Of a stretch of 56,797 nucleotides of DNA, positions 22,693 through 27,690 are shown in pieces. The number at the start of each line of letters is the position of its first letter. The first letter of the stretch is position 1. Origin of the DNA: Elusimicrobiota bacterium (GTDB taxonomy: Bacteria; Elusimicrobiota; Elusimicrobia; UBA1565; UBA9628); assembly GCA_023249675.1 (NCBI GenBank), contig JAHFCE010000003.1, positions 54,988 to 111,784 on the forward strand, in the 5' to 3' direction. A program made the position numbers and the translations under genes. A model generated the notes under the pieces. It saw nothing but the letters and a program-made list of their open reading frames with translations, had not been told where the DNA came from and ran no database searches.

Positions 22693-23172
22693 CTAGCCGA
22701 CTTTCCTAACGAGCTGTTGGGTGAAGGGCTCGGCCTCGTCATTCTCGATGATCTTCACGAGCCCCACGCCGGGCGCGTAGCAGCGCTCTCCCGAGCCGCC
22801 GTCGCCCTCCGCGATCAAATAGGCGACGCGCAGGCAGTTCGTGAACTTCCCCGCCGGCGTCTCGACGGAGGCGTCGAGCGACTTGATCCAGAATCGGCGC
22901 GGCGGACTGATCCACTCGGTGCCGACCTGAACCGGCTGATTAAACTCAATATCATTTCCTTCGCGGACGCCGTGGGCGTCCTTCGTCACGGTGAATTCGC
23001 AGACCGTCTCGGTCTCATTCATCCACTTCACGGTGCGGCGGCACTTGGCCGTCGCCGCGGCGCCGTCGGTCGAGACTTCAAGCACCTTGGTCTTGCAGCT
23101 GCCGGTGCCCTGAGAATTCTCCTTGACGTATTCGCGCCGCGCGCCTTTGACGAGGGGGAAGAAGTCGAGCAT
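22693..23172 (-). CDS. Small protein of unknown function, co-translated with metH
   Basis: A 159-aa protein beginning [19 protein letters not shown]. Its ATG shares one base with the metH stop (TGATG), which fixes the start; the longer open frame runs through metH in another register and is not real. The pattern 'FPL..G....Y' at the start, then TPAGKFTNCLRVAY and CYAPGVGLVKII, recurs in a loose group of beta-rich bacterial proteins, many of them lipoproteins. Here there is no signal peptide. The function is unknown. Confidence 0.75.
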   Translation of the reverse strand: MLDFFPLVKGARREYVKENSQGTGSCKTKVLEVSTDGAAATAKCRRTVKWMNETETVCEFTVTKDAHGVREGNDIEFNQPVQVGTEWISPPRRFWIKSLDASVETPAGKFTNCLRVAYLIAEGDGGSGERCYAPGVGLVKIIENDEAEPFTQQLVRKVG

Positions 23173-26100
23173 CAGCTCGCCGCCGCCTCGTTTTGGCCCA
23201 CGGAGAAGTAGCGGGCCTTGGGGTGGTGGAAGACGAGGGCCGAGACCGTGGCCTCGGGCTCCATCATGAAGCCCTCGGTGAGCGTGACGCCCGCGTTCTT
23301 TTCGGGGTCGAGGAGTTTGAAAAGGATCGTCTGGTCCTCGAGGTTCGGGCAGGCCGGGTAGCCGAAGCTGACGCGCACGCCGCGGTACTTGCCCTGGAAC
23401 TTCTCGCGGATGCTCATTCCGGGGGGATCCCCGATGCCCCACATCCTTCGGATGTGACTGTGTATCAGCTCGGCGAAGCCTTCGGCGGCCTCGATCGCGA
23501 TGGATTGCAACGCGTGCGACTTGAGGTACTCGCCGTCGTCGCGATACTTGTCGGAGAGCTCTCGAATGCCGGCGCCGCAGGTCACGACGAACATCGCCGC
23601 GTAGTCTCGGCCCGTTCCCGCGGGCCTCACAAAGTCTGCCAGGCACAGGCGCTCGCCGGCGGGCTGGCGCGGGAAGTCGAAGCCGGCAAGGGGGGCTGCC
23701 GCCGAAGGCGACGCATAGAGATTCATCCGGTCGCCGGTCGCGTCGGAGGCGAAAAACTTAAAGACGGCCTTGGGTTTGATGAGGTCCTTCGCCAGGATCT
23801 CGTCCTGGAGCGCCCGCACGCGTTTGTGTAGCTCGACGGCCTTCGGGTTCTTGTCCTTGAGATGCTGTTCGAGGCTGCCGCGCAGGCCGAGATGCTTGCC
23901 GTACAGCATGATCGGATTGATGTACCGGAAGATGTCCTCGACCGGGAAATCAGCGAGCGCGTGGAGCTTGAGGTCGGGCGGGACGGGGGCAACGTCATGG
24001 ATGATCTCCACGCGCGGCGCCGCGGGACCCGCAGACTCGGCGGCGACGGGGGCGATCGTCTCAGTTCGCAGGTATTCTTGAATTTCTCGGTTTTTGGCGA
24101 GAAGAGCCTCTTTCTTCTCGCCAAAATAGTCGTTGGCGAGCGAGAGACCGGTCATCGCGTCTTTCGCGTAGAACACCGGGCCGTCGTAGGAAAGCGCGAT
24201 GCGCTTGGCCGCGAAGCGCGGCGAGAGGGCCGCGCCGCCGACGAGGATGGGCAGGCGGATGCCCGCGGCGGTCAGGTCGTCGGCGGTGACGACCATCATC
24301 TGCGCCGATTTCACAAGGAGGCCGGACAGGCCGATCGCGTCGGGCTTGTGCGTTCGGATCGCCTCGAGCAGCTGCTCGGGAGCGACCTTGATGCCGAGGT
24401 CTACGATCTTGTAACCGTTGTTTTTTAGGATGATGTGCACGAGATTTTTGCCGATGTCGTGCACGTCGCCTTTGACTGTCGCCAGGAGGATCGTCGCGCG
24501 GGTGGAGGCGTCGGCCTTCGTCATATGAGGCTCGAGGTGGGCGACGGCCGCTTTCATCACTTCGGCCGACTGGAGGACCTCGGCGACGATCATGGTGTTG
24601 GCGCCGAACAGGCGGCCGACCTCGTCCATGCCGGCCATCAGCGGGCCGTTGATGATCTCGAGGGGCTTGAGGGTTTTGAGGAGCTCATCGAGGTCGGTCT
24701 TGAGGCCTTCCTGGGAGCCCTCAACGACGTTTCTGGCGACCCGTTCATGAATTGGAAGCTTGAGCCGTTCCGATGGGCTTTTTTCGACGGTCTTGACCAG
24801 GCGGAAGTGCTCGGAGAATGCGGCCACGGCGTCGAAACCGGCGGGATGTTTGGGATCCCCTGGGCCGGCCCAGGAGAGAAGATCCCAGGACAGCTTTTTT
24901 TCAATATCGGAAATCTGAGAATAGCGGGCGAGTTTTTCGGCGTTCACGATCGCCAGATCAAGACCCGCCTCGACGCAGTAGTGAAGAAAAACGGAGTTAA
25001 GAACCTCGCGTCCGGCGGCTGGGAGGCCGAAGGATACGTTCGAGATGCCGAGGACGGTTTTGCACCGTGGCATGGCTGATTTGATTATTTTTATGCCCTC
25101 GATCGTCTCAACGGCGGAGCCCCAGTAGTTCTTGTCGCCGGTGCCCGCGGGAAAGACGAGCGGGTCGAAGATAATATCCTCGGGGGCGATGCCGTATTTG
25201 CCCGTGAGCAACGCGAACGAGCGCTGGGCGATCTCGAGCTTGCGCTCGCGCGTGAGGCCCATGCCCATGACCTTATCCTCGTCGATCGTGCCGACGACGA
25301 GGGCCGCGCCGAATTGGTGGACCAGCGGGATGACGGCCTCGAAGCGCTCCTCGCCGTCTTCCAGGTTAATGGAGTTGAGGATGCACTTGCCGGGCGCGCG
25401 CTTGAGGGCCTCTTCCATGACCTTGGCGTCGGTCGAGTCGATCATGAACGGGACCTTGACCTTGCGCACGGCCTTGTCAAAGAAGGCGATGAGGTCGTCC
25501 TTTTCGTCGCGGTCGGGGTTGGCGAGGCAAACATCAATGATGTGCGCGCCGGCGCGGACCTGATGGCGGGCAAGTTCGGCCGCCGCCTCGATCTCACCGC
25601 CCACGATGAGTTCCTTGAACTTGCGTGAGCCGATGACGTTGGTGCGTTCGCCGACGATCAGCGGGCGGCGGTCTTCCTCAAGCGAGAGAGACTCCATACC
25701 GGAGACCGAGGAGCGGCGTGATTTGTGCGCGCGGCGCGGCGGCTTGTTTGCGACGGCGGCGGCGATCAGCCGGATGTGCTCGGGCGTCGTGCCGCAGCAG
25801 CCGCCGACGAGATTCACCCAACCCTCCTCCGCGAAGCGGCCGACCTTTTTCGCGACCATCACGGGGCTCTCGTTGTATGCGCCGTTTTCGTCGGGTAATC
25901 CGGCGTTCGGATAACAAATTGTGAACGCCCGCGTGAGAGAAGATAATGTGCGCAGATGATCGGTCATGAAGTCCGGACCCGTGGCGCAGTTCATGCCGAT
26001 CGCGAGCAGGTCAAAGTGGGCGACGGCATCGGCCAACGCGGCGATGTCCTGGCCGCCGAGCATGGTGCCCATCGTCTCGATCGAGACCGAGAGGATCACG

Positions 26101-26699
26101 GGAATCGAGCGGTTTGCCGCTCGAAAGGCCTGGTGGATGCCGTTGATCGAGGCCTTGATGTTGATCGTGTCCTGCTGGGTCTCAAGCAGGACGAGGTCGG
26201 CGCCGCCTTCGAGCAGGCCCGTCGCCGCCTCGCGGTAGCCTTCGAGCACCTCGTCGTAGGTGATACCGCCGGTGACCGAGATCGTCTTGGTGCCGGGGCC
26301 CAAGGCGCCGGCGACGAAGCGGGGCTTGTCCTTGGTCGCGTGCTTGGCGGCGGCCGCGCGCGCGAGCGCGCAGGCCTTCCGGTTGATCTCGCGGGCCTTG
26401 TCCTGTAGGCCGTACTCGGCGAGCACGTGGCGGATCGCGCCGAAGGTGTTGGTCTCGACGAGGTCCGCGCCGGCCGCGAAGTAGGCCTCGTGCACCTCTT
26501 GGATCACATCGGGGCGCGTGAGGACGAGGTTTTCGTTGCAGCCCTCGAGCTCGGGGCCGCCGAAGTCCTTCGCGGTCAGGTCGCGGGCCTGGAGCATGGT
26601 GCCCATAGCGCCGTCGAGCACGAGGAGCCGGCGATGGAGAAGCTCCCGGAGCTCGTCCTCTCGGCCGCGATCAGTGAAGCGAATGGGTCCCTGGCTCAT
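23172..26699 (-). CDS. metH: Cobalamin-dependent methionine synthase
   Basis: A full-length 1175-aa MetH that transfers a methyl group from methyltetrahydrofolate through cobalamin to homocysteine. The domains in order are: homocysteine-binding barrel with zinc cysteines (GMNCATG and [10 protein letters not shown]); pterin-binding domain ([12 protein letters not shown]); B12 cap and B12 domain with the cobalt-ligand motif DVHDIGKN; and C-terminal AdoMet reactivation domain ([20 protein letters not shown]). All four modules are present, so self-reactivation is expected. The ATG at 26699 has no ribosome-binding site. A terminator-like hairpin lies 17 bases upstream, within a structured leader. 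Confidence 0.97.
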
Positions 26700-26823
26700 G
26701 TTCTGCTAAAATTGAAAAACCACGCCGCCGGGCGTGGTTTCTTGCGCCGTTTTAGCGCCCGGTGGGCCGGGGCCTATTGACGCCGAAGGCGCTCAAATCC
26801 TCGCCTGCGACGGGGGTAGTATA
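26700..26823 (-). promoter_or_regulatory. Structured leader of metH, candidate attenuator or riboswitch
   Basis: A TATACT -10 box (26818-26823, minus strand) lies just after the upstream gene and would give a leader of about 112 bases. On the minus strand the leader contains a GCGCC-TTC-GGCGT hairpin, a GCCCCGG/CCGGGC hairpin, then AAAACGGCGC, which could instead pair with the first GCGCC. It ends in a perfect 10-bp hairpin followed by T residues right before metH. The mutually exclusive pairings look like a transcription switch. The ligand is unknown. There is partial resemblance to SAH riboswitches (GAGGA, GCGC, AAACGGCGC), but the fit is incomplete. Confidence 0.45.
26715..26740 (-). terminator. 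Terminator-like hairpin directly upstream of metH
   Basis: Perfect 10-bp inverted repeat AAACCACGCC / GGCGTGGTTT with a 4-base loop at 26717-26740. On the minus strand it is followed by a run of five T residues (26715-26719). It may terminate the upstream TPR gene, serve as the expression platform of the metH leader, or both. Confidence 0.7.
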
Positions 26824-26844: not shown

Positions 26845-27690
26845 CTAGTGGCGCAGGATAAGCTCTTGGAAATCTTGGCGGTTGCGCAGGGAGTCGAAAT
26901 CCTCGTCCTTGGCGGCCTTCTGGATCGAGCGCCGATCGATTCTGACTGCGATCAGCAGCTCGCGCATGGCGTCATCAAGGCGGCCGGCCAGCGCCAGCAT
27001 CGCGGCGTGAGGATAGCGAGTGTCGGCGAGCTCCGGGGCGAGCTTGGCGCCGATATCGGTTTCGGCCAGCGCGCCATCGAGATCGCCGTTGTGAAACAGC
27101 CGGCGACCGTTATTCACGTGGGCCCGGCCGCGGTCGGAGCGTGCGCGTGCGTTGTCGCTGCGCGTGAGTAGAAACTTAAAGCGGTCGCGCTCGCCGATCT
27201 TCTCGTAGATGAGAAGGGCGCAGGTGCCGAGCGGATTGTAGTGCGCCCGCCCCCAGCGCCATCGCCGCGTGTCGGGCCAGACGTCGGTTCGCGCCTGGAG
27301 GGCGGCTGTGGACAAGATCACCTTGGCGGAGCTCGGCGACCCGGCGGTCGTGGAAGCGAGAATCATTTCGTCGAAGCCGGGGCGGTTGTGGCCGGCCTCG
27401 CGCAACTCCTTGCGGAGGCGATTGATCCCCGGCTCGTCGTAGGTGTTGACGCCGTCGGCCTCGAGAGCCCAACGCGTCTCGACGTCCGGCTTCCCGGCGA
27501 CGATGGACAGGGTCCCGACGCGCGTCATGATCGGATCGCCCTGGATGGCTTCCCCGAGCTTCGGGAAGGCGTAGTGCTCGATGGCGACCGAACAGGCGTC
27601 GTTCCAGCCGATGATCTTATATTCCTCGCGCTCGACGTTGAGAGCGGCGGCCGGAGCGGCGAGCAGTAGGAGCGCGGTCAGGAGGATCAT
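26845..27690 (-). CDS. Exported TPR-containing protein of unknown function
   Basis: A 281-aa protein with a signal peptide (MILLTALLLLAAPAAA). The middle has no motif that I recognise. The C-terminal 90 residues form two or three tetratricopeptide-like helices, for example HVNNGRRLFHNGDLDGALAE and AAMLALAGRLDDAMRELLIA. The ATG at 27690 was chosen over an upstream start at 27756 because it begins the signal peptide directly and lies 9 bases after an extended -10 box. Repeat type and export are supported; the function is unknown. Confidence 0.75.
   Translation of the reverse strand: MILLTALLLLAAPAAALNVEREEYKIIGWNDACSVAIEHYAFPKLGEAIQGDPIMTRVGTLSIVAGKPDVETRWALEADGVNTYDEPGINRLRKELREAGHNRPGFDEMILASTTAGSPSSAKVILSTAALQARTDVWPDTRRWRWGRAHYNPLGTCALLIYEKIGERDRFKFLLTRSDNARARSDRGRAHVNNGRRLFHNGDLDGALAETDIGAKLAPELADTRYPHAAMLALAGRLDDAMRELLIAVRIDRRSIQKAAKDEDFDSLRNRQDFQELILRH

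What the first reader, a model, noticed from the sequence alone, without database searches (positions are those of the whole stretch)
26700..26823. metH leader looks like a transcription attenuator or unrecognised riboswitch
A TATACT box just after the upstream gene, a leader of about 112 bases with two GC-rich hairpins and competing GCGCC/GGCGC pairings, and a perfect 10-bp terminator hairpin ending 17 bases before the metH ATG. Since no promoter fits in the last 17 bases, metH expression must read through the hairpin. metH is a known target of SAM, SAH and cobalamin riboswitches. Part of the leader (GAGGA, GCGC and AAAACGGCGC) recalls the SAH class, but with an insertion and without the full core.
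Basis: partly seen in the sequence, partly recalled or inferred. Interest (0 to 1): 0.6.

Follow-up and report, generated by a model that had tools for sequence, protein, structure and literature searches.

The report
Unlisted SAM riboswitch family before metH
The stretch of RNA in front of the methionine-synthase gene belongs to a previously unlisted family of RNA switches, related to the known SAM-II and SAM-V switches, which in Elusimicrobiota bacteria probably turns methionine genes off when S-adenosylmethionine is plentiful, although the copy in this window has lost part of the binding site.

Summary
On the minus strand, metH (26699-23172) has a 112-base leader with a conserved -10 box and a terminator whose 10-bp stem ends 17 bases before the ATG. 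The leader alone does not fold unusually well. Comparison with relatives settles it. About 30 metH leaders in 29 Elusimicrobiota genomes carry the motif GGCGAGGAUUU..CC-GAAUU-GCCCC-GGCC..GGGnGC-UAAA-GA-GG. Three helices, including a pseudoknot, show compensatory changes (0 of 500 shuffles). The same motif precedes metY, metX, metK, cysT and dsrE2-tusA. Its conserved bases match the published SAM-binding core of SAM-V and SAM-II (third strand UUU, descending UUG, ascending UAAA). Rfam's SAM-II, SAM-V, SAH and cobalamin models do not find it. [quoted passage not shown] The SAH resemblance is not supported. The window copy is a true but diverged member: AAUAGG replaces AAUUG, removing a uridine whose SAM-V equivalent (U20) faces the SAM sulfonium, and a hairpin is inserted. 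Its own SAM binding is therefore doubtful. Nothing was tested at the bench.

The parts
26818..26823 (-). -10 promoter box TATACT
   Evidence: At the matching place in relatives 27 of 44 leaders score at least 5 on the TATAAT scale, against 1.7 expected from shuffled upstream sequence; -35 weak in the window copy
26700..26811 (-). predicted metH leader RNA, about 112 nt (start site inferred from the -10 box)
   Evidence: inference
26803..26805 (-). P1 5' strand GGC (pseudoknot half); with the next 8 bases also the proposed antiterminator GGCGAGGAUUU
   Evidence: covariation of P1 across 36 sequences; pairing with the terminator arm
26795..26802 (-). GAGGAUUU, third strand of the triplex; UUU (26797-26795) equated with U8-U10 of SAM-V
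   Evidence: invariant UUU in 36 sequences; SAM-V numbering from PMC6061858
26780..26792 (-). hairpin GCGCC-UUC-GGCGU inserted in the window copy, absent from its close relatives
   Evidence: other members have different hairpins at the same site (L021, L109, L110)
26779..26783 (-). P2a 5' strand GCGUC, pairs with GGCGC at 26748-26744 (5 bp, one U-G)
   Evidence: folding; P2a covariation GC15 AU5 CG5 UA5 (GCC/GGC in closest relatives)
26774..26778 (-). AAUAG in place of the conserved (C/G)(A/G)(A/C)UU; loss of the uridine equated with U20 of SAM-V
   Evidence: only copy of those compared without UUG here
26769..26773 (-). P2 5' strand GCCCC
26765..26767 (-). P1 3' strand GCC in the loop of P2, pairs with GGC 26805-26803
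   Evidence: P1 covariation; spacing as in relatives
26755..26760 (-). P2 3' strand GGGCGC with bulged C
26751..26754 (-). UAAA, equated with U47-A48-A49-A50 of SAM-V
   Evidence: UAA invariant in 36 sequences
26744..26748 (-). P2a 3' strand GGCGC
26717..26740 (-). intrinsic terminator stem-loop AAACCACGCC-CGGC-GGCGTGGTTT followed by T-rich tail
   Evidence: sequence; terminators at the same place in relatives
23172..26699 (-). metH, cobalamin-dependent methionine synthase, 1175 aa
   Evidence: TIGR02082 1185 bits, cut-off 1010.85

Best explanation
The metH leader is a diverged member of a SAM-sensing riboswitch family that is widespread in Elusimicrobiota and built on the SAM-II/SAM-V pseudoknot. 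Shown by computation: a conserved RNA begins a few bases after a promoter. It folds as a pseudoknot: P1 is GGC with GCC in the loop of P2; P2 is GCCCC/GGGnGC; P2a is nCC/GGn, variable at its outer pair. It carries UUU, UUG and UAAA at the places that form the SAM triplex in SAM-V, is followed by a terminator or, in one case, a Shine-Dalgarno sequence, and precedes methionine, SAM and sulfur genes. Inferred: SAM binds in the P2 triplex and locks the 5' strand GGCGAGGAUUU into P1 and the triplex. The terminator then forms and metH is off. Without SAM the 5' strand can pair with the terminator's 5' arm (CCnCGCC plus AAA) and transcription continues. The window copy keeps promoter, P1, P2, P2a, UUU, UAAA, antiterminator pairing and terminator. 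It has lost the UU of UUG and gained a hairpin, so it probably binds SAM poorly or not at all: a decayed or altered switch.
For: Conserved motif in metH leaders of relatives. Model R1, built without the window copy, finds it at 30.5 bits; 44 of 341 phylum genomes carry the motif at E <= 0.01. Covariation: 93.5% of cells paired against 87.0% shuffled, 0 of 500 shuffles reach it, covariation score 0.175 against at most 0.041 for slid structures. Six uridines invariant in 36 sequences, as reported for SAM-II (PMC1273637); third-strand UUU, U19-U20-G21 and U47-A48-A49 as in SAM-V (PMC6061858). Genes behind the motif: metH, metY, metX, metK, cysT, dsrE2-tusA, a methionine-aminotransferase-like gene. 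The SAM-I riboswitch occurs only in other families of the phylum. Antiterminator: in most metH leaders the terminator 5' arm folds onto GGCGAGGAUUU when the 3' arm is left out; stronger complementarity than other terminators, p = 0.0025, and 13 of 500 shuffled probes as good.
Against: No binding or expression data exist. The window copy lacks the conserved UU, so the explanation is weaker for this copy than for the family. The antiterminator statistics are moderate, and the partner differs in metY-type leaders. Six copies precede genes with no evident tie to methionine (L107, L110, L116, L119, L167, L169).
Confidence: 0.8

Rival explanations
1. The window copy is a decayed relic: the family is a SAM riboswitch, but in this genome the pocket is broken and the leader is now only a promoter with a leaky terminator in front of metH.
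For: AAUAGG instead of AAUUG, plus a 13-base hairpin insertion, found only in the window copy. Several relatives have lost the leader altogether, with metH right behind another gene (L138, L140, L148, L149, L155).
Against: Promoter, P1, P2, a 5-bp P2a, UUU, UAAA, antiterminator pairing and terminator are all kept. A dead switch with a working terminator would cut metH expression, so loss of the whole leader would be expected.
Confidence: 0.5
2. The whole family senses something other than SAM (for example SAH, methionine or homocysteine) on a SAM-II-like scaffold.
For: Several metabolites of the same pathway fit metH and metY; the sequence lies outside Rfam's SAM-II and SAM-V models.
Against: The six uridines and the UAAA that make the SAM pocket are kept in canonical members. 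metK, metX, metY and cysT repression is the known SAM regulon, and SAM-I occurs in other families of the phylum.
Confidence: 0.1
3. Leader-peptide attenuation or a protein-binding leader rather than a direct metabolite switch.
For: A terminator and an alternative pairing are present, as in any attenuator.
Against: No conserved or methionine-rich leader peptide. Single-stranded U and A bases are invariant in an RNA pseudoknot with covarying helices.
Confidence: 0.05
4. Ordinary terminator of the upstream gene; metH is transcribed from a start inside the last 17 bases (leaderless).
For: The gene before metH ends only 145 bases upstream and no Shine-Dalgarno sequence is evident in the last 17 bases.
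Against: A conserved -10 box and a conserved RNA motif lie between the upstream gene and the terminator in about 30 leaders with different upstream neighbours.
Confidence: 0.03

Closest known systems
SAM-II riboswitch (metA motif, Rfam RF00521 SAM_alpha)
   Same: H-type pseudoknot; six invariant uridines; P2a helix; promoter a few bases upstream; usually an intrinsic terminator; methionine and SAM genes (PMC1273637)
   Different: Not recognised by the Rfam model. P1 only 3-6 bp; P2 of 5 bp with a bulge next to the GC; longer third strand GAGGAUUU; GC-rich P2 with P1's 3' strand right after it; many members carry an extra hairpin; phylum Elusimicrobiota
SAM-V riboswitch (Rfam RF01826)
   Same: Core UUU / A-U-U-G / UAAA at the same places; short P1; an optional hairpin (P3) between P1 and P2 3' strands; metY as target; one member (L126) with the Shine-Dalgarno sequence inside P2a
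   Different: Not recognised by the Rfam model; mostly transcriptional with terminators; P3 absent from most metH-type members; longer P2 with bulge
SAH riboswitch (Rfam RF01057)
   Same: Also found before methionine-cycle genes (from general knowledge)

Membership tests
SAM-II (RF00521) | score above the Rfam gathering threshold (36 bits) | tested here: not met
   No RF00521 match in the window region at E <= 10, in 17 motif loci at E <= 5 or in two motif stretches at E <= 10; 0 of 150 genomes over cut-off. No over-threshold positive control was available
SAM-II (RF00521) | H-type pseudoknot of P1 and P2 with P2a, supported by covariation | tested here: met
   for the family
SAM-II (RF00521) | six invariant uridines | tested here: inconclusive
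   met by 36 family sequences; in the window copy four are certain, the UU of UUG is replaced by A/G
SAM-II (RF00521) | promoter just upstream, terminator downstream, methionine/SAM genes | tested here: met
SAM-II (RF00521) | selective SAM binding | not testable with these tools
   needs in-line probing or calorimetry
SAM-V (RF01826) | score above the Rfam gathering threshold (41 bits) | tested here: not met
   no positive control rang
SAM-V (RF01826) | core U8-U10, A18-U19-U20-G21, U47-A48-A49-A50 | tested here: inconclusive
   compared by eye with the published numbering: UUU, UUG and UAA invariant in the family, A18 is A, C or U; U20 lost in the window copy
SAM-V (RF01826) | Shine-Dalgarno sequence in P2a (translational control) | tested here: not met
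   window: terminator instead; only L126 shows a Shine-Dalgarno sequence overlapping P2a
SAH (RF01057) | Rfam model match | tested here: not met
   no match at E <= 10
Cobalamin (RF00174) | Rfam model match at the metH leader | tested here: not met
   cobalamin riboswitches exist in 13 of 44 family genomes, none on the metH contig where the metH contig is known

The most novel reading that the evidence does not exclude
The window copy is a variant riboswitch with changed ligand preference. The one pocket position that separates SAM from SAH (the uridine equated with U20) is altered while scaffold, promoter, antiterminator and terminator are kept, so metH here may answer to SAH or another pathway metabolite.
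Probability: 0.07. Interest if true: 0.8.

Novelty: new variant of a known kind. Interest (0 to 1): 0.62.

Why it matters
It appears to be the SAM switch of a large part of a bacterial phylum known almost only from metagenomes, and it is not found by the Rfam models tried. It shows that the SAM-II/SAM-V pocket extends to a further scaffold and further lineages, in families of the phylum where SAM-I was not found. It offers a natural mutant (the window copy) at the position thought to discriminate SAM from SAH, which makes a structural hypothesis about that discrimination directly testable.

Tried and rejected
SAH, SAM-I and cobalamin riboswitches at the locus: no Rfam match. The weak Rfam matches BSnc120, OmrA-B and Leu_leader are terminator look-alikes well below their cut-offs. 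Leader peptide: none conserved. Folding energy of the single leader: not significant. Repeat of the leader elsewhere in the genome: only itself. The motif in 59 metH loci of other phyla: none. The motif in viral contigs: none for one exact pattern. Finding true SAM-II copies as a positive control in plasmids and viral contigs failed. Literature: no paper in the library joins Elusimicrobia and SAM riboswitch, and no 'SAM-VII'.

Full report
What is in the window. The window lies in an Elusimicrobiota genome (G000, contig 25; MetH relatives are Elusimicrobia MAGs). On the minus strand, metH runs 26699-23172 and the preceding ORF ends at 26845. Taken alone the leader is not exceptional: its folding energy is 1.47 standard deviations below shuffles, and Rfam has nothing above threshold in the whole window and nothing credible at E <= 10 around the leader.

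Comparison. The nearest MetH proteins in public genomes are Elusimicrobia. Printing the DNA before those genes shows a shared block in most of them: a -10 box, then GGCGAGGATTT..CC-GAATT-GCCCC-GGCC..GGGnGC-TAAA-GA-GG, then a terminator, then metH. A covariance model built from 11 of them, without the window copy (R1), finds the window copy at 30.5 bits, E = 1.3e-6, with the next window match at 10.8 bits. A search of all 341 genomes held for the phylum gives strong matches in about 30 genomes with R1. With the broader R2, which includes the window copy, 44 genomes match at E <= 0.01. By my count about 30 leaders in 29 genomes belong to metH. R2 finds nothing in 59 metH loci of other phyla.

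Structure. I cut each member into the parts that should pair and left out the variable hairpin; this is a constructed alignment, and the spacer of one or two bases before the P1 3' strand was chosen by a rule. In 36 distinct sequences, 93.5% of cells pair against 87.0% after shuffling; no shuffle of 500 reaches the observed pairing, double changes or covariation score, and slid structures fall to 25-52% paired. The outer pair of P2a occurs as G-C 15, A-U 5, C-G 5 and U-A 5 times. P1, the pseudoknot, has two-sided changes at three of four pairs (GGU/ACC, AGC/GCU, and an outer pair in all four orientations). P2 is nearly invariant but has C-G to G-C in L012 and, outside this alignment, GGUCGC/GCGACC in L116. 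An independent RNAalifold run gave the same P2 and P2a.

What it works like. In SAM-V the third strand U8-U10, the descending A18-U19-U20-G21 and the ascending U47-A48-A49-A50 form the triplex that holds SAM, and U20:A48.U9 surrounds the sulfonium and excludes SAH (PMC6061858). SAM-II has six absolutely conserved uridines (PMC1273637) and binds SAM almost identically to SAM-V (PMC6061858). The Elusimicrobiota RNA has UUU, (A/C/U)UUG and UAA(A/G) at those places, with exactly six invariant uridines. This comparison of core bases was made by eye from the published numbering. The genes behind the motif are those a SAM sensor would control: metH, metY (seven genomes, two with tandem copies), metX, metK, the sulfate permease cysT, dsrE2-tusA and a methionine-aminotransferase-like gene. 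The known SAM-I riboswitch is found in sampled families 6, 7, 23, 28 and 29 of the phylum, while this motif at E <= 1e-4 is in families 1, 2, 3, 8, 9, 10, 12 and 15: no overlap.

Mechanism. The -10 box is conserved: 27 of 44 leaders score at least 5, 1.7 expected. When metH leaders are folded up to the terminator loop, the terminator's 5' arm pairs in most of them, the window included, with the aptamer's own GGCGAGGAUUU, which resembles the terminator's 3' arm GGCGUGGUUU. The complementarity is stronger than for other terminators in the same loci (p = 0.0025), and 13 of 500 shuffled probes do as well, so this is moderate evidence. In several metY-type leaders the partner is the 3' side of the aptamer instead (AGCGGC with GCCGCU). 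In L126 there is no terminator and the Shine-Dalgarno AGGAG lies in P2a, as in SAM-V. All three arrangements predict an OFF switch. Ligand binding and switching are inferred, not shown. No conserved leader peptide exists.

The window copy. Among the copies compared only this one lacks UUG: it reads CAAUAGGCCCC where its 90%-identical relatives read AAUUGCCCC or GAUUGCCCC. A hairpin GCGCC-UUC-GGCGU is inserted before it; other members carry unrelated hairpins at the same site. P1, P2, a 5-bp P2a, UUU, UAAA, promoter, antiterminator pairing and terminator remain. In SAM-V, 4-thiouridine at U20 severely reduced SAM binding (PMC6061858), so I expect the window RNA to bind SAM poorly. Decay and altered specificity cannot be told apart by sequence.

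Membership. The Rfam SAM-II and SAM-V models do not reach threshold in any of 150 phylum genomes, including genomes with strong copies (G201, G189), and are not listed even at E <= 10 on two short motif stretches. I therefore call it SAM-II/SAM-V-like, not a member of either family as defined in Rfam.

Novelty. No paper in the open library links Elusimicrobia with a SAM riboswitch; subscription literature was not available. I rate it a new variant of a known kind.

Noticed in passing
L125 (635-724 and 786-873, -), L170 (2036-2107 and 2202-2331, +), L171 (2018-2088, +): Tandem copies of the motif before metY in two genomes; before metK in a third, a second, more diverged copy (GTATTTAATATCCAACTTG...AACTAAAGCGG) follows the first.
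   Followed up: partly
L107 1501-1559 (-), L110 1501-1551 (+), L116 2826-2888 (+), L119 188-243 (+), L167 1634-1712 (+), L169 2152-2211 (+): Well-formed copies, most with terminators, before genes with no evident methionine role (an AAA_25 ATPase, unknown proteins); unexplained.
   Followed up: partly
L126 2662-2736 (-): Copy before metY without terminator; Shine-Dalgarno AGGAG overlaps the P2a 3' strand, so the same aptamer seems to be used for translational control.
   Followed up: partly
L110 / L130 (G148): The terminator 5' half holds TCCTCGCT, a perfect 8-base complement of the aptamer's 5' AGCGAGGA, the clearest antiterminator pairing seen.
   Followed up: no
L138, L140, L148, L149, L155, L156, L160, L161: Several Elusimicrobiota metH genes have no leader motif and follow another gene directly, so the switch has been lost or never gained several times.
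   Followed up: partly
L025 and L033: A public record titled Klebsiella pneumoniae MAG (CAMBFS010000037.1) gives the same locus length, match position and identity as a Deltaproteobacteria MAG record; the Klebsiella label looks wrong.
   Followed up: no
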